Shown: positions 4,877 to 53,703 of the stretch, piece by piece | Layout of the letters: every line of letters starts with the position of its first letter | How positions within the stretch are numbered: position 1 is the stretch's first letter | Source: Sediminibacterium sp. Gen4 | Lineage (GTDB): Bacteria > Bacteroidota > Bacteroidia > Chitinophagales > Chitinophagaceae | Assembly: GCA_013391385.1 (NCBI GenBank) | Contig: JACBFI010000002.1 | Location: 124,001 to 188,000 of the forward strand | Direction: 5' to 3' | Length of the DNA stretch: 64,000 nt | Position numbers and translations under genes: made by a program | The notes under the pieces: model-generated | The model's database searches: none | The model's input: the letters and a program-made list of their open reading frames with translations, nothing else | Told to the model about the DNA's origin: nothing

Positions 4877-5452
4877 ATGCGTATCCTTTTTGCACTAGTT
4901 TTTTCTTTAGCTTTCTCATCGCTCATTGCCCAACACCAGCACCTTTCAGGTGACGGTTATGCTGATAGTGTTAACAAGGGCTTGATTGCTAAGGATACTA
5001 TGAAAGGCAGTCCGAAAAGAGTAGCCATGAAAACCATTGGAGATACGCATATTCATATCGAATATGGGTCTCCGGGTGTAAAAGGAAGAATGATTTGGGG
5101 CGGATTGGTAGCTTATGATCAAGTATGGGCAACAGGAGCACACAATGCTACCTCCATTGACTTTTCGACGGATGTAACCATTGGGGGAAAGAAAATTACC
5201 AAAGGGAAATACGCTCTTTTTACGATCCCGGGTAAAACTGAATGGACCATCATCATCAATACCAACTACCAACAACATCTTGCCGATGCATACAATGCTT
5301 CAGAAGATATCGTACGTGTTAAAGTAAAACCCATTAAAAAGCCCCAAGTAACCCAACGACTCACCTACTCAGTAGTACCTTCCGGTAAAGACGCAGGTGT
5401 GATGATTGAATGGGAATATTTGAAAGTAGTACTGCCAATAAAAGTGTCTTGA
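4877..5452 (+). CDS. DUF2911 exported protein
   Basis: 191 residues from the ATG at 4877. A longer frame opens with TTG at 4859, but the ATG places a standard signal peptide (MRILFALVFSLAFSSLIAQ) at the N-terminus. The mature part carries DUF2911 hallmarks: IEYGSPGVKGRMIWGGLVAY, WATGAHNATSIDFSTDV, GKYALFTIPG and WTIIINTN. It is expected to be periplasmic; the family role is unknown. Its TGA stop lies at the first unit of the heptamer array that fills the next intergenic space. Confidence 0.85.
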   Translation: MRILFALVFSLAFSSLIAQHQHLSGDGYADSVNKGLIAKDTMKGSPKRVAMKTIGDTHIHIEYGSPGVKGRMIWGGLVAYDQVWATGAHNATSIDFSTDVTIGGKKITKGKYALFTIPGKTEWTIIINTNYQQHLADAYNASEDIVRVKVKPIKKPQVTQRLTYSVVPSGKDAGVMIEWEYLKVVLPIKVS

Positions 5453-5610
5453 GTGAGTTGTGAATGGTGAATGGTGAATAGTGAGTAGTTAGTAGTTAGT
5501 AGTTAGTAAATCATTCTACTAAATAGTCAATACTTTCTCTATGGACTATTAACTGTGGACCATCAACTACCTGCTATGAACCATTGGCTATGAACTATGG
5601 ACCATGGACT
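5452..5610. repeat. Heptamer-periodic inverted repeat, site A
   Basis: The left arm (5452-5507) is eight contiguous 7-mers drifting from agtgagt through ggtgaat to agttagt. The right arm (5541-5610) is ten 7-mers of the type atggact/atgaacc, whose complement is RGYNNAT-like, so the arms can pair imperfectly. The left arm starts at the last base of the DUF2911 stop codon. The right arm ends within the stop codon of the convergent metallophosphoesterase. A 33-bp spacer separates the arms. Confidence 0.85.
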
Positions 5611-6862
5611 ATCCCCCCAACTCAATCACCGTAATCTCAGGCAATATCCCCACTCTTCCGGGGTAACCAATAAAGCCGAATCCACGATTGACGTACAATT
5701 TTTGTTTGCCCTCTTCATATAAACCAGCCCATTGTTTGTACATCCACTGAACAGGGCTCCACTTGAAATAAGGGTTCTCTAATCCAAATTGCATGCCATG
5801 GGTATGTCCGGATAACATCAGATCAACATCGGAATATTCGGTTCTGATTTGCGCATCCCAATGACTGGGGTCATGACTCAATAATATTTTAAAAGGGATC
5901 TGTTCCGTTCCCGGATATGCTAAATCCATTTTACCATATTTGGGAAAACGCCCTTTAGCACCCCAGTTTTCGATTCCAAGTAAAGCTATTTGTTGACCTT
6001 CTTTTTCAAATGCCACGTGTTCATTCATGAGTAAGCGCCAGCCCATATCCGCATGTGTTTTTTTCAAAGCTTCCAGATTGGCGGCTTTTTCTTCGCGAGT
6101 AGGCCAGGAAACATAATCACCATAATCATGATTACCCAAAGTACTGAACACTCCCATAGGAGCTCGAAGACGAGCAAAAACAGACTTGTATTCTTCCATT
6201 TCAGAAGCCCGGTCGTTAACAAGGTCACCGGTAAATACGATGAGATCAGGTTTTTCTTGAAGGATCATATCAATGCCATGTTCTACTGCTTTTTTATTTT
6301 GAAAGCTGCCACTATGGATATCACTGATATGAACCATTTTCATTCCGTGAAAAGCTTCAGGAAGATTGGGAAATGAAAGTTTCAGTTTTTTAATCTGATA
6401 ATTGTATTTATTACTGAATCCATACAATAAAGTACCAAACAAGGAACCCCCCATGCCCAATCCCATCCAGCTTAAAAATGTAGAACGCGGTATACCTCCA
6501 CCATTATCGCTCATGTACTGAGCACCGGTACCCGGAAATATTTTACTCATCAACCATAGGGCTATACGTCTGAGATCATCTGTCAAAAAGAAAAGTGCGG
6601 CTATGAGTTTGGCAAAAAATAATCCAACCAGTATGGCAAAAATATAATTCCGGTAAAATTTAGAGTTCTGTAAGAGCTGTATATAAGGGAAAGATAACAG
6701 CGCAAGCAATGTAACCACTGAAAGTACCCAATATCCAATATGGATGATCAACCGGGTTTTGTCGGATAGAGTCTGTGTGACCGTTCTGACCGCCTGGAAT
6801 ACATAAAAATCAAGTAAAAGCATGATGAGGGCTATCACCCAGAGAGTACCGGCATTACGCAT
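5609..6862 (-). CDS. Membrane-anchored calcineurin-like metallophosphoesterase
   Basis: 417 residues. Residues 1-150 contain about four hydrophobic segments (for example GTLWVIALIMLLLDFYVF). The C-terminal catalytic domain has the metallophosphoesterase motifs in order: HISDIHSG, FTGDLVND, LGNHDYGDY, LLSHDPSHWD and LMLSGHTHGMQFG, which supply the Asp, His and Asn ligands of the two-metal centre. It resembles the YaeI/YkuE group, which acts on lipid-linked or periplasmic phosphoesters; the substrate here is not determinable. The start at 6862 is the first ATG. The TAG stop lies at the end of the heptamer array, so the repeat provides the end of the gene. Confidence 0.9.
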   Translation of the reverse strand: MRNAGTLWVIALIMLLLDFYVFQAVRTVTQTLSDKTRLIIHIGYWVLSVVTLLALLSFPYIQLLQNSKFYRNYIFAILVGLFFAKLIAALFFLTDDLRRIALWLMSKIFPGTGAQYMSDNGGGIPRSTFLSWMGLGMGGSLFGTLLYGFSNKYNYQIKKLKLSFPNLPEAFHGMKMVHISDIHSGSFQNKKAVEHGIDMILQEKPDLIVFTGDLVNDRASEMEEYKSVFARLRAPMGVFSTLGNHDYGDYVSWPTREEKAANLEALKKTHADMGWRLLMNEHVAFEKEGQQIALLGIENWGAKGRFPKYGKMDLAYPGTEQIPFKILLSHDPSHWDAQIRTEYSDVDLMLSGHTHGMQFGLENPYFKWSPVQWMYKQWAGLYEEGKQKLYVNRGFGFIGYPGRVGILPEITVIELGG

Positions 6863-7011
6863 GAGAAAGTTTTAATGTGTAGACGTACAGTGAATAAAAA
6901 TATTGCATTTTACATGAAGCCATAGAATGACCATCAAAAACCACTCATTCTTAACAAATTAACCCCCAAACAGTTGAATCTGCTTCACACAAAAAATTGC
7001 CCGATAAAACC

Positions 7012-7046
7012 ATTGGCCATGGACTATGGACCATATGCTATTCTTA
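7012..7046. repeat. Heptamer repeat, single-arm copy, site B
   Basis: Five consecutive 7-mers (attggcc, atggact, atggacc, atatgct, attctta) of the ATNNRCY type lie in the divergent spacer between the metallophosphoesterase and UPF0173 genes. No partner arm was seen, so it looks like half an element. It sits about 35 bp upstream of a candidate promoter. Confidence 0.7.
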
Positions 7047-7082
7047 TGGATAAGATTCTTTCAAAAGATGTCTTTGAAACCG

Positions 7083-7090
7083 TATTTTTG
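7083..7090 (+). promoter_or_regulatory. Candidate -7 promoter element for the UPF0173 gene
   Basis: TATTTTTG matches the Bacteroidota TAnnTTTG -7 consensus exactly. It lies 23 bp before the ATG at 7114. No convincing -33 TTTG box was found. Confidence 0.5.
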
Positions 7091-7113
7091 GCGTCCTTCA
7101 AAGAAATGTGGCT

Positions 7114-7794
7114 ATGAAATTGACTTATTACGGACATTCCTGTTTTCAAGTGGAAATCAAAGGAAAAAAGATCCTTTTTGATCCCTTTATTACCTATAAT
7201 GAGCTAGCGAAAGATGTGGACGTCAATAGTATTGAAGCCGACTATATCTTTTTATCGCATGGGCATGCGGATCATATTGCTGATGCTGTTGGTATTGCAA
7301 AAAGAACCGGCTGCACAGTGGTGAGTGCATGGGAAGTTCATGAATGGATCACCAAACAAGGTATTGAGAAATCTCACCCGATGAATACGGGGGGGAAATG
7401 GAATTTTGATTTCGGAACGGTGAAATGTGTAGTTGCACAACACAGTAGCAGTTTACCGGATGGTAGTTATGGCGGTAACCCGATGGGGTTTCTATTCATG
7501 ACAGAAGAAGCTAATTTTTACTACAGCGGCGATACTGCACTTACATTGGATATGCAATTGATTCCTTCTTGGACTCAACTTGATTTCTCTGTGCTGCCCT
7601 TGGGTGATAATTTTACCATGGATGTCGATGATGCTGTTCGTTGTGCTGATTTTGTGCAATGTAACCGTGTAGTTGGCGTACATTACAATACATCCGGGTT
7701 TATTAAAATTGATACGGATGCTGCAGTACAAGCATTCAAAGCGGCAGGAAAAGAATTATTATTGCCGGGTATCGGAACAACCATTGACCTTTAA
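7114..7794 (+). CDS. UPF0173 metal-dependent hydrolase (metallo-beta-lactamase fold)
   Basis: 226 residues from ATG 7114; an in-frame GTG two codons upstream (7108) is a weaker choice. The N-terminus MKLTYYGHSCFQVEIKGKK and the metal motif LSHGHADHIAD define the UPF0173/YtkL-type branch of the metallo-beta-lactamase superfamily. Further metal ligands are likely in AQHSSS, YYSGDTALT and VGVHYNT. It is cytoplasmic, a predicted two-metal hydrolase, with physiological substrate unknown. It lies 39 bp upstream of parA on the same strand, so it may share transcripts with the chromosome-partitioning genes. Confidence 0.9.
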   Translation: MKLTYYGHSCFQVEIKGKKILFDPFITYNELAKDVDVNSIEADYIFLSHGHADHIADAVGIAKRTGCTVVSAWEVHEWITKQGIEKSHPMNTGGKWNFDFGTVKCVVAQHSSSLPDGSYGGNPMGFLFMTEEANFYYSGDTALTLDMQLIPSWTQLDFSVLPLGDNFTMDVDDAVRCADFVQCNRVVGVHYNTSGFIKIDTDAAVQAFKAAGKELLLPGIGTTIDL

Positions 7795-7833
7795 AATATA
7801 AATATTCCGTTTTGCGGAAGCATAAGAATCATT

Positions 7834-8634
7834 ATGGCGAGAATAATCGGAGTTGCCAATCAGAAAGGGGGTGTAGGTAAAACTACTACTGCTATTAATG
7901 TTGCCGCCAGTTTAGCTGTGCTGGAATTCAAAACATTATTGGTGGATGCAGATCCACAGGCCAATAGTACCACCGGTGTTGGATTTGACCTGCACAATAT
8001 TACCAGCAGCTTATACGATTGCATGGTCAATAACGCCATTGCTGCTGACGTGATCCTGAAAAGCGAAATCCCGAACCTTGATATCATTCCATCACATATT
8101 GACTTGGTAGGTGCTGAGATTGAAATGATCAATTATCCGAACCGTGAAAACGTAATGAAAGGGATTTTAGATGCGGTAAAAGATCGCTACGATTTTATCA
8201 TTATCGACTGCTCCCCTTCTTTGGGATTAATCACCGTGAATTCATTGGTAGCTTCCGACAGTGTGATCGTACCTGTTCAATGCGAGTTCTTTGCATTGGA
8301 GGGATTGGGAAAACTACTCAATACGATTAAAATTGTACAAAGTCGTCTCAATCCTGAATTACAAATTGAAGGTATTTTAATGACGATGTATGATGGTCGT
8401 TTGCGTTTATGCAACCAAGTGGTAAGTGAAGTAAGAAGACATTTTGATGAAATGGTTTTTTCTACCATCATTCACAGAAATACCAGACTGAGTGAATCAC
8501 CGAGTGTAGGTAAACCCGTAATCCTGTATGATGCCGAAAGTAAAGGCGCCATCAACTACTTAAATCTAGCCAAAGAAATCTTACAGAACAATGGCTTGAC
8601 TAAGATGTCGAATGAAGAGAGAATTATTGAGTAG
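7834..8634 (+). CDS. parA: Chromosome-partitioning ATPase ParA/Soj
   Basis: 266 residues. The deviant Walker A motif is at residues 11-17 (KGGVGKT in GVANQKGGVGKTTTAINVAA); Walker A' DADPQANSTTG and Walker B FIIIDCSPSLGL follow. This is the short chromosomal Soj type without an N-terminal DNA-binding domain. It forms ATP-dependent dimers on nucleoid DNA and is driven by ParB-parS complexes to separate replicated origins. parB follows after 87 bp that are largely occupied by inverted repeat C; the TAG stop of parA lies within the left arm of that repeat. Confidence 0.96.
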   Translation: MARIIGVANQKGGVGKTTTAINVAASLAVLEFKTLLVDADPQANSTTGVGFDLHNITSSLYDCMVNNAIAADVILKSEIPNLDIIPSHIDLVGAEIEMINYPNRENVMKGILDAVKDRYDFIIIDCSPSLGLITVNSLVASDSVIVPVQCEFFALEGLGKLLNTIKIVQSRLNPELQIEGILMTMYDGRLRLCNQVVSEVRRHFDEMVFSTIIHRNTRLSESPSVGKPVILYDAESKGAINYLNLAKEILQNNGLTKMSNEERIIE

Positions 8635-8697
8635 CATATAGGTTATAGCTAATGGCTTATCCTTAATAAAACTATTCGCTATGAACTATATGCTACT
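8630..8697. repeat. Heptamer-periodic inverted repeat between parA and parB, site C
   Basis: Left arm 8630-8655 (agtagcatat, then gttatagctaat-like 7-mers) pairs with right arm 8672-8697: the outer 10 bp (agtagcatat/atatgctact) are perfect and the next 14 about 11/14. Words are of the RGYNNAT family. The parA stop codon TAG is inside the outer stem. The hairpin could attenuate or process the parAB mRNA. Confidence 0.85.
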
Positions 8698-8721
8698 AGC
8701 AAAAAATGAAAAACGATTACC

Positions 8722-9645: not shown

Positions 9646-9652
9646 TCAATAC

Positions 9653-10318: not shown

Positions 10319-10384
10319 GATCCGTCTTGATTAAAATTTGTTTCTTCCCGATTTACAAATAAGTTTGCTGCAAAAGCAGAGATC

Positions 10385-11101: not shown

Positions 11102-11189
11102 TCACACCCCCCAATGGTATTAAAAACTACATTCTACTGTTTTTTTTATATTTTGTATCAGGGATAGGACTCCTGTAAAATGGTACCAC

Positions 11190-11600: not shown

Positions 11601-11624
11601 ACAAACCTCTAAAACAAAACTGAA

Positions 11625-12509: not shown

Positions 12510-13460
12510 TTATTTTTTGAGATTTTTAAGCATATCCTCCGTCATCTTTGCCAAATCAAATTCAGGTTTCCATCCCCAATCAAGGGTGGCCACACTATCA
12601 TCTATACTCTGAGGCCAGCTATCTGCAATCTGCTGTCTATAATCCGGAGCATAATTCATAGTGAAATCCGGTATATGTTGAACAATTTCAGCACCGATTT
12701 CTTTAGGCGAAAAACTCATTCCAGATAAGTTATAGGATGTTCTGACCGATATTTTTTCTGCAGGCGCTTCCATTAACTCCAATGTAGCCCTGATGGCATC
12801 GGGCATGTACATCATCGGCAAATAAGTGTCTTCCTTGAGAAAGCATTGGTATTTCTTGTGCTCCAATGCTTCATGATAAATTTCAACTGCATAATCTGTA
12901 GTACCACCACCGGGTGCAGATTTATAGCTGATCAAACCGGGGTATCTCAAACTACGTACATCCACCCCATATCGTTGAAAATAATAATTGCACCAGAACT
13001 CACCTGCATACTTACTGATACCATATACCGTTGTGGGTTCAATAATGGTTTGTTGCGGACAATTTTGCTTGGGGGAAGTAGGACCAAATACGGCAATACT
13101 ACTCGGCCAATAGACTTTGGTCAATTTCTCTTCACGCGCAATATCCAGTACATTCAATAAGCCTTGCATGTTGAGGTGCCAGGCCAGATTTGGATTTTTT
13201 TCTCCTGTTGCAGAAAGTATCGCTGCTAATAAATAAATCTGGGTGATATTTTGACGAATCACCTGCACATGCAACATCTCTTTATTCATCACATCCATAC
13301 TCACATACGGACCAGTACCTTCTAATAATGGGTTTTGTTCACGCAGATCTGAAGCGATGACATTATTATTTCCATACAGCTTTCGCAACGCCAATGTCAA
13401 TTCCACCCCAATCTGACCCGAAGCTCCGATGACTAAAATTTTTTCTTTTTGCTGAGACAT
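12510..13460 (-). CDS. NAD-dependent epimerase/dehydratase, L-threonine 3-dehydrogenase-like
   Basis: 316 residues from ATG 13460 (MSQQKEKILVIGASGQIG); the frame extends 17 codons further upstream but that part looks non-coding. An extended SDR: NAD motif GASGQIGVE near the N-terminus, catalytic Ser in YWPSSIAVFGP and YxxxK in YGISKYAGE. The sequence LRYPGLISYKSAPGGGTTDYAVEIY is characteristic of the SDR-type L-threonine 3-dehydrogenase, which oxidises threonine to 2-amino-3-ketobutyrate. No kbl ligase gene is adjacent, so the specific activity is probable rather than certain. It diverges from kdsA across a heptamer-repeat region. Confidence 0.88.
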   Translation of the reverse strand: MSQQKEKILVIGASGQIGVELTLALRKLYGNNNVIASDLREQNPLLEGTGPYVSMDVMNKEMLHVQVIRQNITQIYLLAAILSATGEKNPNLAWHLNMQGLLNVLDIAREEKLTKVYWPSSIAVFGPTSPKQNCPQQTIIEPTTVYGISKYAGEFWCNYYFQRYGVDVRSLRYPGLISYKSAPGGGTTDYAVEIYHEALEHKKYQCFLKEDTYLPMMYMPDAIRATLELMEAPAEKISVRTSYNLSGMSFSPKEIGAEIVQHIPDFTMNYAPDYRQQIADSWPQSIDDSVATLDWGWKPEFDLAKMTEDMLKNLKK

Positions 13461-13504
13461 GCAATCATTTTTTAGAGGAACAAAGAAAGAGAAAAAAGGG
13501 GAAT

Positions 13505-13644
13505 AGTCCATGGTCCATAGTCCATAGCAAATGGTTCATAGCTGATGGCTTATGGTTGATAGGCAATAGTTCCTGACACTGATGATTGCTCAGTTATACC
13601 CCATGGACCATGGACTATAAGCTATGGACTATCGACTACTAACC
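13505..13644. repeat. Heptamer-periodic inverted repeat, site D
   Basis: Left arm 13505-13574: ten 7-mers (agtccat, ggtccat, agcaaat, ggttcat and variants) of the RGYNNAT type. Right arm 13603-13644: six 7-mers of the complementary ATNNRCY type. The 14-mer agtccatggtccat (13505-13518) recurs inverted and perfect at 13603-13616. It occupies the divergent spacer between the SDR gene and kdsA, where promoters must also lie. Confidence 0.85.
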
Positions 13645-13682: not shown

Positions 13683-14507
13683 ATGATTCCAGGCTTTTTG
13701 ACAGAGCTTTTTAAGCACCAGCAGTATGATCACAATAACTTTTTTCTGATTGCAGGTCCATGTGTGGTGGAAAGTGAAGAATTGGTGATGGAAATAGGTG
13801 AAAAGGTATCAGGTATTTGTAAGAACCTGGGTATTCCTTATGTGTTCAAAGCAAGTTATAGAAAAGCCAACAGAACCAGTGCCAGTTCGTTTACGGGAAT
13901 CGGCGATGATAATGGTTTATCACTGATTAAAAAAGTGGGCGATACTTATCAACTACCCACTACTTCTGACATTCATGCACACGATGAAGCGGCTATGGCT
14001 GCTCCATATATAGATATACTTCAGATACCGGCTTTCTTATGCCGACAAACAGATTTACTATTAGCTGCCGCTGACACGGGAAAAATCGTCAACGTGAAGA
14101 AAGGACAATTCCTCAGTGGACCTTCCATGAAATTTGCAGTAGACAAAATCAAATTTGCCGGTAATGATAAGATCCTGCTAACCGAACGCGGAACAACTTT
14201 TGGTTATCAGGATTTGGTGGTTGATTACAGAAATATTCCCTGGATGCAAGAACATGGTTGTCCAGTAATTATGGACTGTACCCATTCCTTACAGCAACCC
14301 AACCAAACAACCGGTGTCACCGGTGGCAATCCACAACTGATCGGTACCATTGCAAAAGCCGCAATTGCTGCCGGGGCTGATGGGCTTTTCATAGAAACAC
14401 ATCCCAATCCCGCCATCGCGAAAAGCGATGGTGCTAACATGTTACGACTTGACCTCCTTGAGCCATTGCTACAGGAACTTGTTCGTTTGAAAAAAGCAGT
14501 GGTGTAG
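13683..14507 (+). CDS. kdsA: 3-deoxy-8-phosphooctulonate synthase
   Basis: 274 residues, normal length. It condenses phosphoenolpyruvate and arabinose-5-phosphate to Kdo-8-phosphate for LPS inner core. Motifs: IAGPCVVES near the N-terminus, FKASYRKANRTSASSFTGIG, LTERGTTFGYQDLVVDYRN, PVIMDCTHSLQQPNQTTG and FIETHPNPAIAKSDGANML. The Asn at FKASYRKANRTS (the position occupied by Cys in metal-dependent forms) resembles the metal-independent class, an inference from memory of the family. A heptamer inverted repeat begins within 5 bp of its stop. Confidence 0.95.
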   Translation: MIPGFLTELFKHQQYDHNNFFLIAGPCVVESEELVMEIGEKVSGICKNLGIPYVFKASYRKANRTSASSFTGIGDDNGLSLIKKVGDTYQLPTTSDIHAHDEAAMAAPYIDILQIPAFLCRQTDLLLAAADTGKIVNVKKGQFLSGPSMKFAVDKIKFAGNDKILLTERGTTFGYQDLVVDYRNIPWMQEHGCPVIMDCTHSLQQPNQTTGVTGGNPQLIGTIAKAAIAAGADGLFIETHPNPAIAKSDGANMLRLDLLEPLLQELVRLKKAVV

Positions 14508-14511
14508 GAAG

Positions 14512-14650
14512 AGACAAGAATGAAGAATCAGGGTACAAGAAAGCTTCAAGTTACAGGCAGCAAGCGACAAGCTATAAAAAAACCAACGCTTGATGCTTGT
14601 GGCTTGCAGCTTGTAACTTTCTTGAATCCTGTGTCTTTATTCTTGTGTCT
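14512..14650. repeat. Heptamer-periodic inverted repeat of a second word family, site G
   Basis: Left arm 14512-14572 is built of 7-mers such as caagaat, gaagaat, caagaaa, gcgacaa. Right arm 14595-14650 uses gcttgtg, gcttgca, gcttgta, tgtgtct. The complement of the right arm aligns to the left over most of its length (for example acaagaa and gcaagc shared). It has the same 7-bp step and the same placement just after a stop codon as the other sites, but different words. It lies between convergent kdsA and the PspC gene. Confidence 0.8.
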
Positions 14651-19048: not shown

Positions 19049-19537
19049 ATGAATGTTACAACAATAACTGTACTTACTTTCACCGAGTCTATTGAAAATC
19101 TATTATTTAGAACTATGATTTGGGAAATATTGACCGTTGCAGGATTGGCTACTTTTGAAGTATATGCAGCAATACCAGCCGGTTTCGCTTTTGGGCTTCC
19201 GGCATGGACCATTTTTCTTTCCAGTATGTCGGGCGGACTGGCAGGTGTGTTTATTGCCACATTTTTGGGAGATAAGATCAAAAAAATCCTAGCAAAATAT
19301 CGTAAACCCAAGCCTGAAAAGCCCAAAACCGGACTGATCTACACCCTTTGGGAAAAATATGGCATTATCGGATTGGGATTCTTTGGTACCATGACTGTGG
19401 GTGCCCCTGTTAGTATAGGTGTTGGAGTAGGCTTCAATGTCCCTTTACAAAAACTACTGGTATGGTGCTGTATAGGCGTAATTACCCGCTGCGCTTTGTT
19501 TACGGCGATTGGGTATTATGGGCTTAAGTTGTTTTAG
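19049..19537 (+). CDS. Small multidrug export (Sm_multidrug_ex) family membrane protein
   Basis: 162 residues; ATG 19049 is used, and an internal ATG at 19112 is possible. It has about four membrane segments with Gly/Pro-rich motifs (VAGLATFEVYAAIPAGFAFG; SGGLAGVFIATFLGD; GLGFFGTMTVGAPVSIGVGV; CCIGVITRCALFTAIGYYGL), a pattern I place in the Sm_multidrug_ex (COG2426) family, whose transport role is only nominal. The TAG stop is part of the first heptamer of repeat E. Confidence 0.75.
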   Translation: MNVTTITVLTFTESIENLLFRTMIWEILTVAGLATFEVYAAIPAGFAFGLPAWTIFLSSMSGGLAGVFIATFLGDKIKKILAKYRKPKPEKPKTGLIYTLWEKYGIIGLGFFGTMTVGAPVSIGVGVGFNVPLQKLLVWCCIGVITRCALFTAIGYYGLKLF

Positions 19538-19635
19538 TCCATGGCAAATGGCGTATGGTTCATTGCCTATAGCAGAAACTATTCTCTACCATAAACTACT
19601 ATGAACCATACGCCATGAACTATTTGCTATGGCCT
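19536..19635. repeat. Heptamer-periodic inverted repeat, site E
   Basis: Left arm 19536-19577 (agtccat, ggcaaat, ggcgtat, ggttcat and others), right arm 19591-19635 (atgaacc, atacgcc, atgaact, atttgct, atggcct). A perfect 14-bp inverted match joins 19550-19563 and 19601-19614. The right arm carries one extra 7-mer. The left arm starts inside the TAG of the exporter gene and the right arm ends inside the stop codon of the convergent UspA-like gene. Confidence 0.87.
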
Positions 19636-20362
19636 AAATCGTCAACAATAACAAAGACATATTAGACTGCATCAAAATCCTTTCCAGTCTTTGCTCGCGC
19701 ATAAAATAGCTGGATAAAGCACCCATCTTAACGGTCGGAATATTCTGCGACTGCATCATTTCTGAAAAATTGGATAACTTTTTCTCTACGGCGTTGAATT
19801 GATATACCAATGATGAAGGAACTTGCTGCTGATTGGATGCAGGGGCATCTAATAAAGAAACCGCGTCAGACATTTCTCGTGCTGTATGAAATGCTCTTGT
19901 TTCCGGCTGTAATAATTCTTCTGAAATATTCGCGAGATCAGATTTTGCGATGTACATCACTGCACAACGTGAACGACATAACATTCTGAAAACATCCAAT
20001 CCCGTTGATTTACCTGTTTCATACCATTCTTCTCTTGAATAAAAAGCAATATCACACCCAAACTCCTGAATATATTGCTTGAATACTGCTGGCGAATCGC
20101 CAAAAATGCGATCAATACTGTACCCTTTTACAATAGCACTGTTTTCTTCTTCGATCTTACGTATAGCTTCGAGAGAACTACTTGAAAACTGATACCCGTG
20201 TGATTGTCTGCCTAGAGTCATTAAATCACTCTCATTATCAGGTATAGGTACTACCTGCAGAAAAGTGCAATGAAACCCTTCTGTTTTATATAACCTTGTA
20301 GCCAATCGAAACAGATTTACCGCATGTTCAGTACATCTCGTTGGGATAATAATCTTTTTCAT
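19634..20362 (-). CDS. UspA-like protein
   Basis: 242 residues. The N-terminal 140 residues follow the universal-stress-protein fold: MKKIIIPTRCTEHAVNLFRLATRLY at the start, a central VVPIP strand and IFGDSPAVFKQYIQEFGCDIAFYSREE. The usual GxxG-9x-GS ATP motif is not evident, so ATP binding is doubtful. The C-terminal 90 residues are helical and polar (AVEKKLSNFSEMMQSQ). Probably cytoplasmic and stress-related; not assignable more precisely. Convergent with the exporter gene across repeat E. Confidence 0.6.
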   Translation of the reverse strand: MKKIIIPTRCTEHAVNLFRLATRLYKTEGFHCTFLQVVPIPDNESDLMTLGRQSHGYQFSSSSLEAIRKIEEENSAIVKGYSIDRIFGDSPAVFKQYIQEFGCDIAFYSREEWYETGKSTGLDVFRMLCRSRCAVMYIAKSDLANISEELLQPETRAFHTAREMSDAVSLLDAPASNQQQVPSSLVYQFNAVEKKLSNFSEMMQSQNIPTVKMGALSSYFMREQRLERILMQSNMSLLLLTI

Positions 20363-24521: not shown

Positions 24522-24571
24522 ATTGATGTATTAAACCCCTCAGTGACTACTTCGGGGAGAAAGAAAAAAAT

Positions 24572-24667
24572 GGCAGGCTACTCACATCGCACCGCTACAA
24601 CCGCCTATCCTTGCTGCATTCCTGCCCTGGGGAGGTTCAGCAGGAGCTGGTCGTGTAAGACCTGCCG
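24572..24667 (-). ncRNA. ffs: Signal recognition particle RNA (small bacterial 4.5S type)
   Basis: On the minus strand, a GGAA tetraloop closed by GCA/TGC sits within CAGGGCAGGAATGCAGCAAG, the conserved Ffh-binding tip of bacterial SRP RNA. Next come GGCGGTTGTAGCGGTGCGAT-type sequences seen in other bacterial small SRP RNAs. The ends pair: GGCAGGU with GCCUGCC over 7 bp. A run of seven U follows directly, as a terminator. An exact TAnnTTTG promoter lies a few bases upstream. It targets nascent membrane proteins with Ffh. The ends are set by pairing and may be off by several bases. Confidence 0.93.
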
Positions 24668-24670
24668 GTG

Positions 24671-24678
24671 CAAAAGTA
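24671..24678 (-). promoter_or_regulatory. -7 promoter element of the SRP RNA gene
   Basis: TACTTTTG on the minus strand matches the Bacteroidota TAnnTTTG consensus exactly and ends 3-5 bp before the paired 5' end of the SRP RNA. Confidence 0.75.
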
Positions 24679-40318: not shown

Positions 40319-41131
40319 ATGGAACTGAAAAAACTCATTGAAGAAGCCTGGTCGAACAGGGAGTTATTACAAAACAGCACATATAGTGATGCGGTGAGAG
40401 CCGTCATTGAAGAGGTAGACAAGGGAAGATTAAGAGTGGCATCACCGGAACAAGAGAAATGGGTGGTGAATGAATGGGTAAAGCAAGCCATTTTAATGTA
40501 TTTCGGTATCCAACAAATGCAAACCTGGACACTGCCGCCGTTTGAATTCTATGATAAAATGTTGCTGAAAAGCAATTATAAAGAATTGGGTGTGAGAGCC
40601 GTTCCGCATGCTGTTGCACGATATGGTGCGTATGTGGCTCGTAATGTGGTATTGATGCCCAGTTACGTCAATATTGGAGCTTATGTAGATGAAGGTTCAA
40701 TGGTAGATACTTGGGCAACAGTAGGTAGTTGTGCGCAAATAGGTAAAGGTGTACACTTGAGCGGTGGTGTAGGCATTGGTGGTGTATTGGAACCATTACA
40801 GGCTAGTCCGGTAATCATTGAAGACGGTTGCTTTATCGGCAGTAGATGTATTGTAGTAGAAGGTGTGATTGTTGAGAAAGAAGCGGTTTTAGGTGCCAAT
40901 GTGGTACTCACACAATCCACTAAAATCATCGATGTAAGCGGCAATGAACCTATTGAATACAAAGGAAGGGTTCCTGCCAGAAGTGTGGTTATCCCGGGCA
41001 GCTATACCAAGAAATTCAATGCCGGCGAATACCAAGTAAGCTGCGCACTCATCATCGGACAACGCAAAGCCAGCACAGATTTAAAAACAAGTTTGAATGA
41101 TGCGTTGAGAGATTTTAATGTGAGTGTTTAG
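40319..41131 (+). CDS. dapD: 2,3,4,5-tetrahydropyridine-2,6-dicarboxylate N-succinyltransferase
   Basis: 270 residues. N-terminal helical domain (MELKKLIEEAWSNRELLQ) then a left-handed beta-helix: MPSYVNIGAYVDEGSMVDTW, VGSCAQIGKGVHLSGGVGIG, VIIEDGCFIGSRCIVVEG, KEAVLGANVVLTQSTKI. C-terminal strand SCALIIGQRKAS. It transfers succinyl from succinyl-CoA to tetrahydrodipicolinate in the succinylase branch of lysine/DAP synthesis, downstream of dapB (10385). The stop codon is inside the first heptamer of repeat F. Confidence 0.95.
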   Translation: MELKKLIEEAWSNRELLQNSTYSDAVRAVIEEVDKGRLRVASPEQEKWVVNEWVKQAILMYFGIQQMQTWTLPPFEFYDKMLLKSNYKELGVRAVPHAVARYGAYVARNVVLMPSYVNIGAYVDEGSMVDTWATVGSCAQIGKGVHLSGGVGIGGVLEPLQASPVIIEDGCFIGSRCIVVEGVIVEKEAVLGANVVLTQSTKIIDVSGNEPIEYKGRVPARSVVIPGSYTKKFNAGEYQVSCALIIGQRKASTDLKTSLNDALRDFNVSV

Positions 41132-41209
41132 TCCTTAGCCAATAGCAAATGGGTTATAGCGTATCGAAGTAAAGATTTGCTATCAACCATATGCTATAAC
41201 CCATTTGCA
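41130..41209. repeat. Heptamer-periodic inverted repeat, site F
   Basis: Left arm 41130-41164 (agtcctt, agccaat, agcaaat, gggttat, agcgtat), right arm 41175-41209 (atttgct, atcaacc, atatgct, ataaccc, atttgca). Segments 41144-41164 and 41189-41209 are inverted matches at 19 of 21 positions. The left arm starts in the TAG of dapD and the right arm ends 5 bp before the GTG start of the EamA gene. Confidence 0.87.
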
Positions 41210-47108: not shown

Positions 47109-47513
47109 TCAACTACAACGTGCCACAATATCTTTGATTTTACCCTCATCCAAAGGCTTGGAGAATATATCGGTTACAATAGCGTACGTTTTCGCCTTAT
47201 CAATATCTTCATAGTATACCGAAGATGTAAACATAATAATGTGGATCTTTTCAAATCCCGGTCTTTTGAGCTTCTCAAATTCAGCCAAAAACTCCCATCC
47301 ATCCATTACGGGCATATTGATATCCAACAAAATGATATCTGGCAAGAGTTCCGGCTGATCGGCTCTTGCATGTAGAAAATCAATAGCTTCCTGTCCATTC
47401 AACGCCGTATCAATTTGGGGAGAAGGCAAGTATATCTTCAACATTTCCCTACTCAGAAAGTTGGTTACATCATCATCATCAACCAGCAAAATATGATGAG
47501 CAGGTTTACTCAT
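47109..47513 (-). CDS. Single-domain CheY-like response regulator partnered with the NMT1-sensor kinase
   Basis: 134 residues. The acidic pocket is DDDD at 12-15, phosphoacceptor Asp64 (IILLDINMPVMDGWEF), Thr in IIMFTSSVYYED and Lys in DIFSKPLDEG. This is the Rcp1-like branch of receivers often found beside PAS-type kinases. Its start overlaps the end of the kinase gene by 8 bp, so the two are coupled. It has no output domain; it probably works as a phosphate shuttle or sink. Confidence 0.93.
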   Translation of the reverse strand: MSKPAHHILLVDDDDVTNFLSREMLKIYLPSPQIDTALNGQEAIDFLHARADQPELLPDIILLDINMPVMDGWEFLAEFEKLKRPGFEKIHIIMFTSSVYYEDIDKAKTYAIVTDIFSKPLDEGKIKDIVARCS

Positions 47514-49749: not shown

Positions 49750-49859
49750 TTTGATCGTATTACTTACTCAATATACTTTTTTTTTAGTTCTGCGTATGAT
49801 TGAACAAAAAATTTGGTGCACAGATAATAAAAAAGAGACAATGGTAATTGTCTCTTAAG

Positions 49860-49943
49860 TGCCCAGGACTGGATTCGAACCAGCACACCCGTGAAGGCGC
49901 TGCGACCTGAACACAGTGCGTCTACCAATTTCGCCACCTGGGC
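49860..49943 (-). tRNA. tRNA-Leu(CAG)
   Basis: Minus-strand cloverleaf of about 84 nt. The acceptor stem GCCCAGG pairs with CCTGGGC. The D-arm contains GGTAGACGC, the anticodon stem-loop is CTGTG-TTCAGGT-CGCAG with anticodon CAG, a long variable arm typical of class II tRNA follows, and the T-loop has GGTTCGAATCC. The discriminator A is encoded but CCA is not, so CCA is added by the cca product (36808). It reads CUG. Confidence 0.96.
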
Positions 49944-50044
49944 AGGTGTTTATGAACGATCAAGCCGCTGTTTCAGGGCTGCAAATATAATGGCAAAGCA
50001 TGCTTTTGGCAAAGTAAATTTTAGAAATGCACCATCGGAGGAAA

Positions 50045-51028
50045 CTAAAGCACCATTAAACTACAGCCTCTGATATCACTATGGTCTAATCGTCCCCAAA
50101 CTTCAAACCTGCCATCTTCATATACCCGACCTACATCTTCTGTGGTAATAAAAGAGCAACTGTACACATTAGCCAAATCAATCAATTGTAGCACTCCTTT
50201 ACCTGTTTGCCCTTTTCCCAAAGGATCTTCCTCATCTCTTGCCATGACTTTCAACCAGGGCGGACATTCAAAAATGCCATCAGCTTTTGAATAGGCCTGA
50301 CTTAATAATTCAGTCATACCATATTCAGAATGGATATAAGACAGCCCTAGTTGTTGTGCTAAAAAGCCATGTACCTCTGCTCTGGTCATTTCTTTTCTTC
50401 TTCCCTTCATACCTCCAGTCTCCATTACAATGGTATGTTTTAATTGCTGGGGAAATGCAGTAGCAAAATCCAATAAACCAAAAGTGACTCCAAGTAAAAG
50501 CGTTTTCTGTCCGAATGCCTCCAATTCTTTCAGCGTATGGTCTAATTCCTGATGATTATACAGATAAAAGCCGCTGTGAGGGTGTTGGGTCATTTGTATC
50601 AATTCTTCCGCCATCATCACCAAGGAAGAATGTTGTCTTTCAAGATATGCGGGTAAAAGAGCCAGTATACACCACTCATCAATCTTACCATAGAACCTTT
50701 CAAAACCGTTGATAAAACTTTGTCGGTACAGATGCATATCCCTTACCCAATGCCGGCTGTTTTGTGTTTGCGTGGTACCACTACTTTCAAAGAAATGAGC
50801 AGCATCCTCACCTGTTAACACCTTTTTTTGCTTAAAAAAAGATACAGGCAACGAGGGAATTTGTTCCGGTGTCTTTACTGTATGCGGATCGATACCCAGT
50901 AATGCACACCATTGATGATATACCGGATTATACTGGTACTGAAACCGGAAAATATCCATGCACACTTCATCGAAATGGTCAACAGAAAGAGAGAAAATAT
51001 TGTTAACATCGAAGGGTAAACCGGTCAT
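50045..51028 (-). CDS. LuxE/PaaK-type acyl-protein synthetase domain protein
   Basis: 327 residues. The ANL-related adenylating core is visible as FESSGTTQTQNSRHWV (P-loop-like SGTT), VMETGGMKGRRKEMTRAEVH and LSYIHSEYGMTELLSQAY. The C-terminal region TTEDVGRVYEDGRFEVWGRLDHSDIRG matches LuxE relatives, which activate fatty acids as acyl-AMP and transfer them to a protein Cys. No luxCD-like genes are present. In Bacteroidota such genes often sit beside sugar or lipid modification genes; here the role is open. Divergent from a lipoprotein gene with a 28-bp gap. Confidence 0.85.
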   Translation of the reverse strand: MTGLPFDVNNIFSLSVDHFDEVCMDIFRFQYQYNPVYHQWCALLGIDPHTVKTPEQIPSLPVSFFKQKKVLTGEDAAHFFESSGTTQTQNSRHWVRDMHLYRQSFINGFERFYGKIDEWCILALLPAYLERQHSSLVMMAEELIQMTQHPHSGFYLYNHQELDHTLKELEAFGQKTLLLGVTFGLLDFATAFPQQLKHTIVMETGGMKGRRKEMTRAEVHGFLAQQLGLSYIHSEYGMTELLSQAYSKADGIFECPPWLKVMARDEEDPLGKGQTGKGVLQLIDLANVYSCSFITTEDVGRVYEDGRFEVWGRLDHSDIRGCSLMVL

Positions 51029-51056
51029 CTATTGTGATGTTTTAACTAAATTTGAT

Positions 51057-51515
51057 ATGAAAGCAGTACGAATGAAGGCAAAATTATTGATAATAAGCAC
51101 AATTCTGCTGGCAGTTGCTGCCTGTAAGAAAGATACCTATACCACAAAGCCTCAGTTGACGTTTAAAAGTGTCAATGGTACCAGTTTTGGCCTCAATTCA
51201 GCCATTATCTTTTCTATTGAATTTACAGATAAAGAAGGTGATATTCAGGATAGCATTTGGGTACAAAAAGTGACTAAGACAAATGGATGTACCAATTTCA
51301 GTGATCGTGTGAAAATACCTTCCTTCACAGCTACCAATAACCTGAAAGGTACTTTTGAGATTGGTTACAGCACCGGTAATATCCCCAATAGTAATTATAC
51401 TGTAATTCCTATTTGTAGCAGAACCGATACTTGTTTTTTCCGCTTTTGGGCCAGTGATCTTGCAAAAAACAAAAGTGATACCGTCGTATCACCTGATATT
51501 ATCATCAGAAGATGA
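51057..51515 (+). CDS. Putative lipoprotein
   Basis: 152 residues from ATG 51057 (ATG 51072 also possible; the open frame reaches back to 50958 only across the divergent LuxE gene). Lipoprotein signal LLIISTILLAVAACKKD with Cys at about 22. The mature part is beta-rich, with LTFKSVNGTSFGLNSAIIFS and DKEGDIQDSIWVQKV, resembling an Ig-like beta sandwich, and contains two further Cys pairs. No family recognised. Its stop overlaps the start of the UbiA-like gene by 4 bp (ATGA). Confidence 0.75.
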   Translation: MKAVRMKAKLLIISTILLAVAACKKDTYTTKPQLTFKSVNGTSFGLNSAIIFSIEFTDKEGDIQDSIWVQKVTKTNGCTNFSDRVKIPSFTATNNLKGTFEIGYSTGNIPNSNYTVIPICSRTDTCFFRFWASDLAKNKSDTVVSPDIIIRR

Positions 51516-52471
51516 TCTTGCAGTCATCAGCTGCATGGGTTGTACATACTATGGTGAAAACACTTGAAAGATTATTCCATACTTTTTTCTTCGGTAATTA
51601 TTTTTATGGCATTTGTGCCGTAGCATTATCGATAGAAGCTTCTTTACAACAAGGTTATTCACTCAATCATCCATTTTGGTATATCCTACTTTTTGTAGGT
51701 ACTGTTATCTATTATACCATTGCCTACCTACAGGAAAAAAATAGCACCAGTATCAATCCGAGAACCATTTGGTACAAAGAACATCAGGCTTGGATCAGAA
51801 AATCGCAATGGATGCTCCTATTCATAGCTGTGATTACCGGGTCTTATTTACTTTTTCTATATGGTTCAGGTATTCAGTTTGTCAAAACCTGGCAATGGAT
51901 CATTATACTAGCATTTCCTACACTCGCAGTTTGGTATTATGGCGACGCGATTCCTTGGTTTCGTAAAACAAGCTTACGATCTAAAGGGTGGATCAAACCC
52001 TTTGTCATCGGTTTTATATGGGCCGGAGTGGTAAATGTCTATCCCGCCATTCTTTCCGCTATAGAAAACAAGAGTAGTTATGAACCTGACGCCTTTCACT
52101 TCTTGCTATTTCTCAAAAATGGTATGTTTATCGCCATGTTATGCATCCTTTTTGATATCAAAGATTATGCTACTGACTATAACGAAGAGCTGAAAACATT
52201 TGTAGTGAGATTCGGGCTGCGGAAAACCCTTTTTTACATCATTATACCACTGACAGCCATTGGTTTGGGTACTTTTTTGACTTATGGCATAGTACATCAT
52301 TTTCCACTCTTTCGAATGCTCATCAACACTATCCCCTTTATTTTGTTGATAATTGTCACCTATCACATGCACCGTCGTAAAAGCATTCTCTATTATCTTG
52401 CAATCATTGACGGGTTAATGCTGGTGAAAGCAATTTGTGGTATTGGCGGAAGTTTGATACAGCACACTTAA
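51512..52471 (+). CDS. UbiA-family-like prenyltransferase membrane protein
   Basis: 319 residues; ATG 51512 overlaps the upstream stop, and ATG 51551 (MVKTLERLFHTFFFG) is an alternative. About eight membrane helices. The second Asp-rich motif of UbiA proteins is seen as LFDIKDYATDYNEE (approx. 210-223), followed by FVVRFGLRKTLFYI. The first NDxxDxxxD motif is not clear, since the corresponding region reads NSTSINPRTI, so it may bind a different or no prenyl diphosphate. Function uncertain. Coupled to the lipoprotein gene. Confidence 0.65.
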   Translation: MILQSSAAWVVHTMVKTLERLFHTFFFGNYFYGICAVALSIEASLQQGYSLNHPFWYILLFVGTVIYYTIAYLQEKNSTSINPRTIWYKEHQAWIRKSQWMLLFIAVITGSYLLFLYGSGIQFVKTWQWIIILAFPTLAVWYYGDAIPWFRKTSLRSKGWIKPFVIGFIWAGVVNVYPAILSAIENKSSYEPDAFHFLLFLKNGMFIAMLCILFDIKDYATDYNEELKTFVVRFGLRKTLFYIIIPLTAIGLGTFLTYGIVHHFPLFRMLINTIPFILLIIVTYHMHRRKSILYYLAIIDGLMLVKAICGIGGSLIQHT

Positions 52472-52500
52472 ACAGCAATCCTCATTTTAATTGAAGCACT

Positions 52501-53622
52501 ATGGCAAAAGTAAAAAGCGTTGCAAAGACAAAATCAAAATCAATCCTGACAGACAAATCCATTGATTTTCTAAAAAAATACATCAACACCCCCTCTCCCG
52601 TTGGCTTTGAAAGCAGTGGTCAAAAAGTTTGGTTGGATTATGTGAAACCTTACACAGATAGTTTCTTTACAGATCCTTATGGAACAGCGGTGGGTGTCAT
52701 TAATCCGACAGCACCTTTCAAAGTAGTGATTGAAGCCCATGCTGATGAAATCAGTTGGTTCGTGAATTATATCAATGACCAAGGATTGATCTATTTAAAG
52801 AGAAATGGTGGTGTAGATCATCAGATTGCACCTGCGATGCGAGTTTTTATACATGGTAAAAAAGGACCGGTGAAAGCAGTCTTTGGTTGGCCTGCTATTC
52901 ATACCCGCCTCAGTAATCCCGATACAAAAGAACCACAACCCAAAGTAGATAACCTTTGTTTGGATTGTGGTGCACGCAATAAAAAAGAAGTAGAGGCTTT
53001 GGGTATACATATCGGCGCAGTAGTTACCTATCAAGAAGGTTTTGATGAATTGGCCAATGACTTTTATATCGGTCGTGCTTTTGATAACCGTATCGGTGGA
53101 TTCATGATTGCTGAAGTTGCGCGACTGCTACATGAAAACAAAAAGAAACTGCCCTTTGGTTTATATGTGGTGAATGCTGTTCAAGAAGAGATTGGATTAA
53201 GAGGTGCTGAGATGATCGCTAGAAGAATTAAACCTGATATTGCCATTGTAACTGATGTTACACACGATACCAGCACTCCCATGATCAGCAAGATCATTGA
53301 GGGTGATATCCAATGTGGCAAAGGTCCTTCACTGGCTTACGCTCCTGCTATTCATAACAAATTGTTGAAAATAGTGGAAGATGCAGCAGAGAAAAACAAA
53401 ATCCCTGTTCAATTCAGAACATTGAGTAGAAGTACCGGAACAGATACGGATAGTTTTGCTTATGCCAATGATGGATGTCCGTCAGTATTGATTTCAATAC
53501 CATTAAGATACATGCACACCACTGTGGAGATGTTGCATAAAAATGATATTGAAGAAACCATCAAACTGATGTACCATACGCTTTTAACATTAACACCTAA
53601 AACAAACCTGAGTTATCTTTGA
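52501..53622 (+). CDS. M42-family metallopeptidase (glutamyl aminopeptidase/endoglucanase-like)
   Basis: 373 residues. Two-metal aminopeptidase motifs: VIEAHADEISWFV (first His and Asp), FYIGRAFDNRIGG (Asp), NAVQEEIGLRGAE (Glu pair), VTDVTHDTS (Asp) and MHTTVEMLH (last His). N-terminal YINTPSPVGFESSGQKVW is typical. It forms large self-compartmentalised particles in relatives and trims short peptides in the cytoplasm. Its TGA stop lies at the first unit of repeat H, which separates it from the amidotransferase gene. Confidence 0.92.
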   Translation: MAKVKSVAKTKSKSILTDKSIDFLKKYINTPSPVGFESSGQKVWLDYVKPYTDSFFTDPYGTAVGVINPTAPFKVVIEAHADEISWFVNYINDQGLIYLKRNGGVDHQIAPAMRVFIHGKKGPVKAVFGWPAIHTRLSNPDTKEPQPKVDNLCLDCGARNKKEVEALGIHIGAVVTYQEGFDELANDFYIGRAFDNRIGGFMIAEVARLLHENKKKLPFGLYVVNAVQEEIGLRGAEMIARRIKPDIAIVTDVTHDTSTPMISKIIEGDIQCGKGPSLAYAPAIHNKLLKIVEDAAEKNKIPVQFRTLSRSTGTDTDSFAYANDGCPSVLISIPLRYMHTTVEMLHKNDIEETIKLMYHTLLTLTPKTNLSYL

Positions 53623-53703
53623 TCTATGATTTCTTGATCTGTGATTTCTTGATTTTTTTATTCTTCAGAAAATCAAGAAATCACAGATCAAAGATCAAAA
53701 AAT
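53620..53703. repeat. Inverted repeat with 7-8-bp units, site H
   Basis: Left side repeats gatctat/gatctgt plus gatttctt; the right side is its complement. A perfect 21-bp stem joins 53636-53656 and 53669-53689 around a 12-nt loop. The array begins in the TGA of the M42 peptidase gene and ends 7 bp before the amidotransferase ATG. It can form a strong hairpin; T-runs lie within the stem rather than after it, so terminator activity is uncertain. Confidence 0.88.

What the first reader, a model, noticed from the sequence alone, without database searches (positions are those of the whole stretch)
5452..53703. A family of drifting 7-bp-period inverted repeats fills eight intergenic spaces
Sites at 5452, 7012, 8630, 13505, 14512, 19536, 41130 and 53620 share one architecture. 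Contiguous words of about 7 bp change gradually along an arm, followed after a short spacer by a second arm made of complementary words, so each site but 7012 can fold on itself. The commonest word is RGYNNAT (complement ATNNRCY), with a second vocabulary at 14512 and a third of 7-8 bp at 53620. No protein explains them. Heptamer STRRs are known from cyanobacteria, but I know of no described equivalent here. Independent drift of words with conservation of step length suggests they arise by slippage or templated extension, not by transposition.
Basis: partly seen in the sequence, partly recalled or inferred. Interest (0 to 1): 0.78.

Follow-up and report, generated by a model that had tools for sequence, protein, structure and literature searches.

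The report
Seven-base-step hairpins at gene ends
Many gaps after the ends of genes in this bacterium hold hairpins built from seven-letter DNA words that keep a few fixed letters and are rewritten at the others between related species, and they look as if they are maintained by the two arms copying each other rather than by a jumping element.

Summary
Spacers of this genome show autocorrelation peaks at 7, 14 and 21; RGYNNAT four times in a row matches 259 times, the reversed-letter control 0 times. Hairpins of about ten heptad vocabularies were found (86 in 849 kb; 66 of 86 abut a stop codon). Arm order is fixed (RGYNNAT first in 22 of 22 two-armed loci here, 21 of 22 in four other genomes). 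In stems the fixed letters G..AT mismatch in 0.4-4%, the variable letters in 19-38%. In two relatives, orthologous spacers often keep a hairpin while variable letters are rewritten; 2 of 18 loops are inverted; two spacers switched vocabulary. RGYNNAT loci are not copies of one element, and a 99%-complete relative rich in arrays has no REP-type transposase. 'Gradual change along an arm' is not supported. There is no U-tract and no G-U bias on the transcribed strand, so these are not classical terminators, though in convergent spacers they avoid ordinary terminators. Best reading: DNA-level, self-templating heptad hairpins in the 3'-end niche. The architecture is that of the heptad stem of the Nostoc trnL intron; genome scale, fixed polarity and stop-codon phasing were not met in eight paper searches.

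The parts
5452..5611 (.). Heptad array/hairpin filling a convergent spacer; left arm AGTGAGT/RGTGAAT/TAGTTAG words, right arm ATNNRCY words; its right edge is the in-phase TAG stop of the minus-strand gene 5609-6862
   Evidence: (z -1.95, borderline)
7012..7039 (.). Single arm of four ATNNRCY words in a divergent spacer; no partner arm
   Evidence: z -0.51
8630..8697 (.). RGYNNAT hairpin starting at the TAG stop of gene 7834-8634 (tandem spacer)
   Evidence: (z -5.28)
13503..13641 (.). Long RGYNNAT hairpin between 12510-13460(-) and 13683-14507(+); the orthologous spacer holds a different palindrome in G137 and a short perfect one (25-bp arms) in G127
   Evidence: z -4.16
14506..14650 (.). Hairpin of the second vocabulary (CAAGNNN / NNNCTTG) just after the stop of 13683-14507
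   Evidence: z -10.11
19533..19638 (.). RGYNNAT hairpin in a convergent spacer; the TAG stop of 19049-19537 is its first letters, in phase
   Evidence: (z -7.15)
41129..41208 (.). RGYNNAT hairpin (stem 41145-41208) in a tandem spacer, after the stop of 40319-41131
   Evidence: z -8.03
53615..53701 (.). Hairpin of the third vocabulary (GATTTCTT / GATCTRT) in a tandem spacer, after the stop of 52501-53622
   Evidence: (z -8.73)

Best explanation
These are palindromic arrays of degenerate 7-nt words that mostly live immediately after stop codons and are maintained at the DNA level by interaction between their own two arms. Shown: the 7-nt step; two complementary arms with fixed order; letters that hardly vary (anchors) and letters that do; placement at gene ends; orthologous arrays that often keep position and folding while the variable letters are rewritten; loop inversion; occasional vocabulary replacement. 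Inferred: during replication the nascent strand switches template inside the hairpin, in register (which re-pairs the arms and can flip the loop) or 7 nt out of register (which adds or removes words); anchors are what allows out-of-register pairing, so only arrays that keep anchors stay alive. The gene end is where such arrays are tolerated and perhaps useful: the first words carry stop codons, often including the gene's own, and the hairpin may serve as a two-sided 3'-end or insulating structure where no ordinary terminator exists. Phase-specific anchor conservation is only partly explained by this and may need a reader.
For: Lag 7/14/21 signal in spacers, not in genes. Hairpin score >=14 (all kinds of hairpin) in 53 of 73 convergent, 84 of 319 tandem and 13 of 81 divergent spacers, 0 of 473 after one letter shuffle each. 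Of 86 heptad hairpins 66 have an end within -20..+12 nt of a stop codon: 20 of 20 in convergent, 46 of 57 in tandem, 0 of 9 in divergent spacers. Orthologous spacers: flanks conserved, arms rewritten, still palindromic; in 12 heptad hairpins that I picked as same-vocabulary pairs, 14 of 23 two-sided changes keep Watson-Crick pairing. Loops inverted between G000 and G127 at L033:14497 (inverted score 15, direct 5) and, less clearly, L033:13245 (11 v 5): 2 of 18 loops tested; arm homogenisation and spacer inversion are published marks of template switching (passages of PMC8604942 and PMC8794818). G.U 80 against A.C 77 on the sense strand argues for DNA-level rather than RNA-level pairing. Among 34 RGYNNAT hairpins no pair of 561 shares 21 nt.
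Against: Pure in-locus copying should treat all seven phases alike, yet RGYNNAT stem mismatch is 0.004-0.041 at anchors and 0.19-0.38 at variable letters (other genomes 0.025-0.065 v 0.105-0.354). 41 one-sided changes against 14 compensated ones, and 8 of 23 spacers with a periodic hairpin in only one species (by eye), show that upkeep is not tight. Words within an arm are hardly more alike than random words. Vocabularies are shared by many loci and several genera and some loci of the poorer vocabularies share 21-31 nt, so exchange between loci cannot be excluded there. Vocabulary switches need an outside source. Many loci in other genomes have one arm only (18 of 40).
Confidence: 0.5

Rival explanations
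1. Selected RNA hairpins: they are transcription terminators, 3'-end stabilisers or insulators, and selection on the RNA stem keeps the arms complementary.
For: Placement right after stop codons and richness in convergent spacers; in convergent spacers heptad hairpins and ordinary terminators avoid each other: 2 of 20 with a heptad hairpin have a terminator against 27 of 53 without, p 0.0013.
Against: No U-tract: TTTT near the 3' end in 7 of 65 tandem dialect hairpins against 14 of 37 other hairpins. No G.U excess on the transcribed strand (80 G.U, 77 A.C of 2100 stem cells). The avoidance is not significant in tandem spacers (5 of 57 v 39 of 262, p 0.29) and in divergent ones the trend is the other way (3 of 9 v 8 of 72, p 0.10). 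Does not explain phase 7 or phase-specific mismatch.
Confidence: 0.22
2. Tandem-repeat slippage alone (as for cyanobacterial STRRs): words multiply by polymerase slippage and then drift.
For: Some arrays hold identical neighbours (TAGTTAG runs near 5484; AGCTCAT runs at C13:21344); gaps between orthologues are common.
Against: Neighbouring words are not more alike than words 2-3 steps away; arms are complementary and of fixed order, which slippage does not produce; anchors and variable letters differ strongly.
Confidence: 0.1
3. A protein or RNA reads the arrays every 7 nt, so the fixed letters are contacts under purifying selection and the others are free.
For: RGYNNAT anchor mismatch is about 5 to 90 times lower than at variable letters, with the same direction in other genomes and a weaker contrast in three other dialects. 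G000-G137: anchors differ at 12 of 364 positions, plain spacers at 0.142.
Against: About ten dialects with different anchors would need as many readers or a very loose one. Anchors were required in the reference species, so the neutral expectation is nearer half the spacer rate (0.07), and in G000-G127 anchors (31 of 350, 0.089) are not below it. Variable letters in G000-G127 change faster than plain spacers (196 of 465, 0.42, against 0.150), which selection on anchors does not predict. In the RGTSAAA dialect (2 spacers, 11-13 words) fixed letters change as much as variable ones.
Confidence: 0.12
4. REP/RAYT-like mobile palindromes spread by an IS200-like (Y1) transposase.
For: In the genus sample of 73 genomes, 9 of 9 with RGYNNATx4 matches have a Pfam PF01797 match (one below the cut-off) against 6 of 64 without; G137 has one too.
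Against: G127, a single-contig genome (99% complete) with 271 three-word matches, has no PF01797 match. RGYNNAT loci share no string of 21 nt between hairpins and have no common ends by eye. Large genomes have more of everything.
Confidence: 0.05

Closest known systems
P6b stem-loop of the Nostoc tRNA-Leu(UAA) group I intron (Class I TDNGATT, Class II NNTGAGT)
   Same: Degenerate heptanucleotide words in both arms pair into a hairpin; length changes in 7- or 14-nt steps; two vocabularies replace each other in one position with a similar fold (passages of PMC4476775 and PMC3488679).
   Different: One locus inside an intron RNA, two vocabularies; here many gene-end spacers and about ten vocabularies. 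The two Nostoc words are not enriched here (x2: 1 and 8 matches in 848,641 bases, reversed-letter controls 3 and 8).
Cyanobacterial STRRs (recalled) and the intergenic TAACTGA repeats of Beggiatoaceae, cyanobacteria and five Bacteroidetes
   Same: 7-nt units, intergenic, patchy distribution (passages of PMC4679880).
   Different: In that paper's main genome TAACTGA sets are direct repeats, mostly just before start codons; here inverted, degenerate, after stop codons. TAACTGA x2 has 0 matches in the 848,641 bases read.
Template-switch (quasipalindrome) hairpins
   Same: Arm homogenisation, compensatory pairs, loop inversion (passages of PMC8794818 and PMC8604942).
   Different: The passages seen concern ordinary inverted repeats without a 7-nt word structure.
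REP/BIME palindromes of enterobacteria (recalled)
   Same: Many short palindromes after genes.
   Different: REPs share a conserved sequence and a RAYT transposase; here G127 has no such transposase and RGYNNAT loci share no long string.

Membership tests
Nostoc-type heptad-repeat hairpin | Both arms built of degenerate 7-nt words that pair | tested here: met
Nostoc-type heptad-repeat hairpin | Words TDNGATT or NNTGAGT | tested here: not met
   not above reversed-letter control
Nostoc-type heptad-repeat hairpin | Inside a group I intron P6b | tested here: not met
   the sites are spacers; at Rfam gathering thresholds the window holds only a small SRP RNA and a tRNA
Intrinsic terminator | Hairpin followed by a U-tract | tested here: not met
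   T fraction after the hairpin 0.23-0.42, TTTT near the end in 7 of 65
Intrinsic terminator | Located just after genes | tested here: met
   66 of 86 heptad hairpins abut a stop codon
Intrinsic terminator | Ends transcription | not testable with these tools
   needs 3'-end mapping or reporters
REP/RAYT element | Y1 transposase in the genome | tested here: not met
   no PF01797 match in array-rich G127; present in G000
REP/RAYT element | Conserved sequence shared by copies | tested here: not met
   for RGYNNAT; some pairs of the poorer vocabularies share 21-31 nt
STRR / simple tandem repeat | Neighbouring units near-identical | tested here: not met
   TRF reports only parts of the arrays
Template-switch hairpin | Loop inversion between relatives with arms kept | tested here: met
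   2 of 18 loops; of five loops with recognisable homology (score >=10) 3 direct, 2 inverted
Template-switch hairpin | Several arm changes made in one event | tested here: inconclusive
   14 two-sided changes keep pairing, but single events cannot be dated at this divergence

The most novel reading that the evidence does not exclude
The arrays are a self-propagating, stop-codon-anchored hairpin: heptads seeded on the gene's own stop codon, whose 5' arms on both strands carry stop codons in shifting frames (because 7 is not a multiple of 3), so each copy is a two-sided read-through barrier that replicates and diversifies itself by 7-nt template switching, with a fixed set of letters needed for that copying. 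Different bacteria would evolve their own dialects of the same grammar.
Probability: 0.15. Interest if true: 0.8.

Novelty: new variant of a known kind. Interest (0 to 1): 0.6.

Why it matters
If right, a large number of gene ends in some Bacteroidota carry a class of palindrome that is neither a mobile element nor a classical terminator, and that shows template-switch evolution in the open: many loci, a built-in phase marker (7 nt), and both arms to compare. It makes the question of why 7-nt repeats are so common in bacteria testable, and it offers a reason why gene 3' ends can differ so much between related species.

Tried and rejected
Gradual drift along the arm: tested, not seen. Copies of one dispersed element: for RGYNNAT, 8 pairs among 57 loci share three words in a row (independent draws 2.9, sd 1.9, highest of 300 simulations 11; Markov chain 45.8), though two-word strings are shared more than under independent draws (186 against 99, highest 159) and less than under the Markov chain (341); between RGYNNAT hairpins no pair of 561 shares 21 nt. 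For the poorer vocabularies this is not excluded: pairs sharing 21 nt or more are 5 of 36 (GATNTNN), 4 of 15 (RGTSAAA), 5 of 28 (GATCTTT), 1 of 1 (GTTGACA), 1 of 15 (GAGCNNN), 0 in CAAGCNN, GAAAYAR and TAGTSAN, and pieces of this genome match many non-orthologous places of G137. RAYT spread: strong association within the genus (9 of 9 v 6 of 64) but no match in G127. Whole-word replacement from a lexicon: in G000-G137 the changes per word (24, 24, 5, 1, 1 of 55) fit independent changes (23.6, 22.8, 7.5, 1.0, 0.0); in G000-G127 too, roughly (8, 17, 17, 13, 3 of 58 against 5.5, 18.0, 21.4, 11.0, 2.1). RNA-stem selection: no G.U asymmetry. Nostoc vocabularies: not enriched. Rfam: no match at the eight sites at gathering threshold. 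A first count of stop codons next to RGYNNAT hairpins (22 of 35) wrongly took in two other dialects by a name prefix; the corrected figure is 19 of 31. Conservation of anchors between species is conditioned on the reference word fitting the grammar; I treat it as weaker than the within-hairpin result, in which each hairpin was counted in both orientations. Stop richness of 5' arms is strong per hairpin (62 v 12) but hairpins of one dialect are not independent: eight of ten dialects go that way, and shuffled 5' arms already hold 1.65 stops per 21 nt against 1.98 observed, so it is mostly composition. The count of 23 orthologous spacers with periodic hairpins was made by eye, and the arm order in G137 (11 of 11 two-armed loci) was read from the rows listed. 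Gene calls are my own simple codon-usage calls, not a curated annotation; dialect classes are regular expressions written after reading, and some hairpins are misfiled (L067:12734 and L068:7967 under GATCTTT).
Full report
What is there. The eight sites were read directly. The common word is RGYNNAT in the left arm and its complement ATNNRCY in the right; site 14512 uses CAAGNNN words and 53620 GATTTCTT/GATCTRT words of 7-8 nt. Six of the eight fold far better than shuffles, 5452 is borderline and 7012 is a single arm. TRF sees only fragments, because the words are degenerate. No Rfam family matches the sites at gathering threshold.

Is it more than chance. The own genome (3.52 Mb, 59 contigs) has 126 + 133 matches of four consecutive RGYNNAT words and none of the reversed-letter control. 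In 541 spacers of 41 stretches (848,641 bases, 19 stretches picked because they held hits) matches between bases 7, 14 and 21 apart are raised (0.312, 0.304, 0.296) and no other lag from 5 to 30 exceeds 0.279; coding sequence shows 0.255 at lag 7. Stretches taken contiguously on three contigs known to hold hits give the same picture. In relatives the signal is patchy: by my z for lag 7, G127 10.9 (280 kb), and in 40-60 kb each G131 3.8, G136 2.6, G017 2.2, and nothing in G010, G037, G064, G061 and G034. RGYNNATx4 is matched in 22 of 120 relatives.

Many vocabularies. Of 473 spacers up to 400 bp, 150 hold a hairpin of score 14 or more, none of 473 after one letter shuffle each. Within the 150, lag 7 stands at 0.43. 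Sorting 176 hairpins of score 13 or more by regular expressions gives 86 in ten heptad dialects (34 RGYNNAT; CAAGCNN 10; GATNTNN 9; GATCTTT/GATTTCTT 8; GAAAYAR 7; RGTSAAA 6; GAGCNNN 6; TAGTSAN 3; GTTGACA 2; TTAGGNN 1), 12 in two families of longer period and 78 others, among them ordinary terminators. 45 of the 86 lie in the 484 contiguous kb, which would make about 330 in the genome if those contigs are typical. CAAGCNN x4 occurs 23 times here and, in the genus sample, otherwise only in G072, which is also rich in RGYNNAT.

Where they sit. Hairpins of score 14 or more of any kind are found in 53 of 73 convergent, 84 of 319 tandem and 13 of 81 divergent spacers; in contiguous stretches 27 of 41, 45 of 181 and 6 of 50. 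Of the 86 heptad hairpins, 66 have an end within -20..+12 nt of a stop codon (20 of 20 convergent, 46 of 57 tandem, 0 of 9 divergent); the 57 tandem ones begin a median 4 bp after the stop and end 49 bp before the next start. Of 50 tandem dialect hairpins (longer-period families included) with room to move, 41 lie in the first quarter of the free space and 3 in the last. Next to RGYNNAT hairpins the stop codon is TAG in 19 of 31 genes against 95 of 623 genes without an adjacent heptad hairpin; of 27 gene ends with a word run within 60 nt, 13 have the T of the stop codon in the T7 position of the array, where 3.9 are expected. Heptad 5' arms hold 1.98 stop triplets per 21 nt, 3' arms 0.85, shuffled 5' arms 1.65; 62 hairpins have more in the 5' arm, 12 fewer, 6 equal, against 17, 18 and 9 for hairpins without a dialect; CAAGCNN goes the other way and GAGCNNN is level. 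Only 29 of 80 5' arms are closed in all three frames (3' arms 10 of 80).

Internal rules. In all 22 own loci with runs on both strands the RGYNNAT arm comes first; so it does in 21 of 22 two-armed loci of four other genomes, while 18 of the 40 loci read there show one arm only and 22 of 40 a hairpin of 14 or more. Both arms obey the word: in stems the fixed letters G, A and T mismatch at 0.004, 0.041 and 0.004, the R at 0.321, Y at 0.189 and the two N at 0.365 and 0.381; other genomes give 0.025, 0.065, 0.049 against 0.354, 0.105, 0.263, 0.300. Three other dialects show the same direction, with one fixed letter each of CAAGCNN and GATGTNN near 0.19-0.20. Words are close to independent draws: neighbours are hardly more alike than random.

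Evolution in place. The closest genomes found are G137 (85% DNA identity at the gene searched) and G127 (84%, one contig). The spacer at 13505 keeps both flanks in all three, but holds three different palindromes; in G127 a short perfect one. Of 86 orthologous G000-G127 spacers examined, a hairpin of 13 or more is in 31 of G000, 26 of G127 and 20 of both, ordinary terminators included; reading that list by eye, 23 spacers have a periodic hairpin in either species, 15 in both (one of them, L034:7338, at score 13 and 12). Two of these changed vocabulary (L032:13531; L034:14143, from the longer-period CTCTGTG family to GTGAAT words). In 12 same-vocabulary heptad hairpins picked from that list, 207 stem pairs are unchanged, 41 changed on one side, 23 on both, 14 of these still Watson-Crick paired, 27 in gaps; 14 ordinary terminators give 201, 15 and 4 (3 paired), 5 in gaps. 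Substitution by phase in G000-G137 (12 spacers) is R 0.26, G 0.04, Y 0.11, N 0.22, N 0.19, A 0.02, T 0.04 against 0.142 in plain spacers; in G000-G127 (17 spacers) 0.36, 0.11, 0.36, 0.51, 0.45, 0.08, 0.08 against 0.150; GATKTNN (3 spacers) agrees, RGTSAAA (2 spacers) does not. The anchors are conditioned on the reference word, so the fair neutral value lies between half and all of the spacer rate. Two of 18 testable loops are inverted between G000 and G127.

How it most likely works. Arm re-pairing and loop inversion with arms kept are known marks of template switching between inverted repeats (passages of PMC8604942 and PMC8794818). The lack of G.U over A.C on the transcribed strand (80 v 77 in 65 tandem hairpins, 2100 stem cells) and the lack of a U-tract argue against selection on an RNA terminator stem as the maker of the pairing. 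Yet in convergent spacers the hairpins avoid ordinary terminators (2 of 20 v 27 of 53, p 0.0013), not clearly so in tandem spacers (p 0.29), so a 3'-end role is plausible.

What it is not. It is probably not a REP/RAYT element: G127 (one contig, 99% complete) has 271 three-word matches and no PF01797 match, although within the genus sample all 9 array-bearing genomes have one. It is not the TAACTGA repeat or the Nostoc vocabulary. It is not simple slippage. That loci are not copies of each other is shown for RGYNNAT only; some loci of the poorer vocabularies share 21-31 nt.

Known relatives. The stem of the Nostoc trnL intron P6b is made of degenerate heptads in two exchangeable classes and varies in 7- and 14-nt steps (passages of PMC3488679 and PMC4476775). 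TAACTGA repeats are described for five Bacteroidetes among others, as direct repeats that in the main genome of that paper lie mostly before start codons (passages of PMC4679880). The eight paper searches listed no title on heptad hairpins at gene ends in Bacteroidota; only listings were seen for the other papers, and the library lacks most subscription journals, so this is weak evidence of novelty.

Noticed in passing
L034:14142-14231, L035:15866-15911, L036:12564-12896, L048, L039 and others (own genome): Two further hairpin families with a longer step (about 9-10 nt: CTCTGTGNNA and TGCCACTGA...CACAGA), in which, as read, both arm orders occur.
   Followed up: partly
G112 (72 forward, 128 reverse), G105, G013, G046: The reversed-letter control pattern (TANNYGR x4) is itself abundant in G112 and present in some other relatives, so other genomes seem to have other period-7 vocabularies.
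   Followed up: no
L466 and L474 (G105), L048:9784-10069 (own genome): Heptad arms enclosing an ordinary terminator-like hairpin, as if the arms had grown around an existing terminator.
   Followed up: no
G115 and G103: RGYNNAT runs on one strand only (42 + 0 and 9 + 0), that is direct arrays without a partner arm at this stringency.
   Followed up: no
L079, L087, L089 (G047, G043, G139), spacers beside the orthologue of window gene 13683-14507: Other members of the genus have repeated words of another kind (GAATATC, GAATAAC) in the same neighbourhood.
   Followed up: no
window 24567-24674 (-) and 49860-49943 (-): Bacteroidales small SRP RNA and a tRNA gene (Rfam gathering hits).
   Followed up: no
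own genome L033:13250 and L034:2413; also L033:14497 and L046:4334, L054:7533 and L066:13689: Different loci share identical 29-31-nt arms of the GTTGACA, GATCTTT and GATNTNN vocabularies, which could be recent copying between loci or the effect of a small lexicon.
   Followed up: partly
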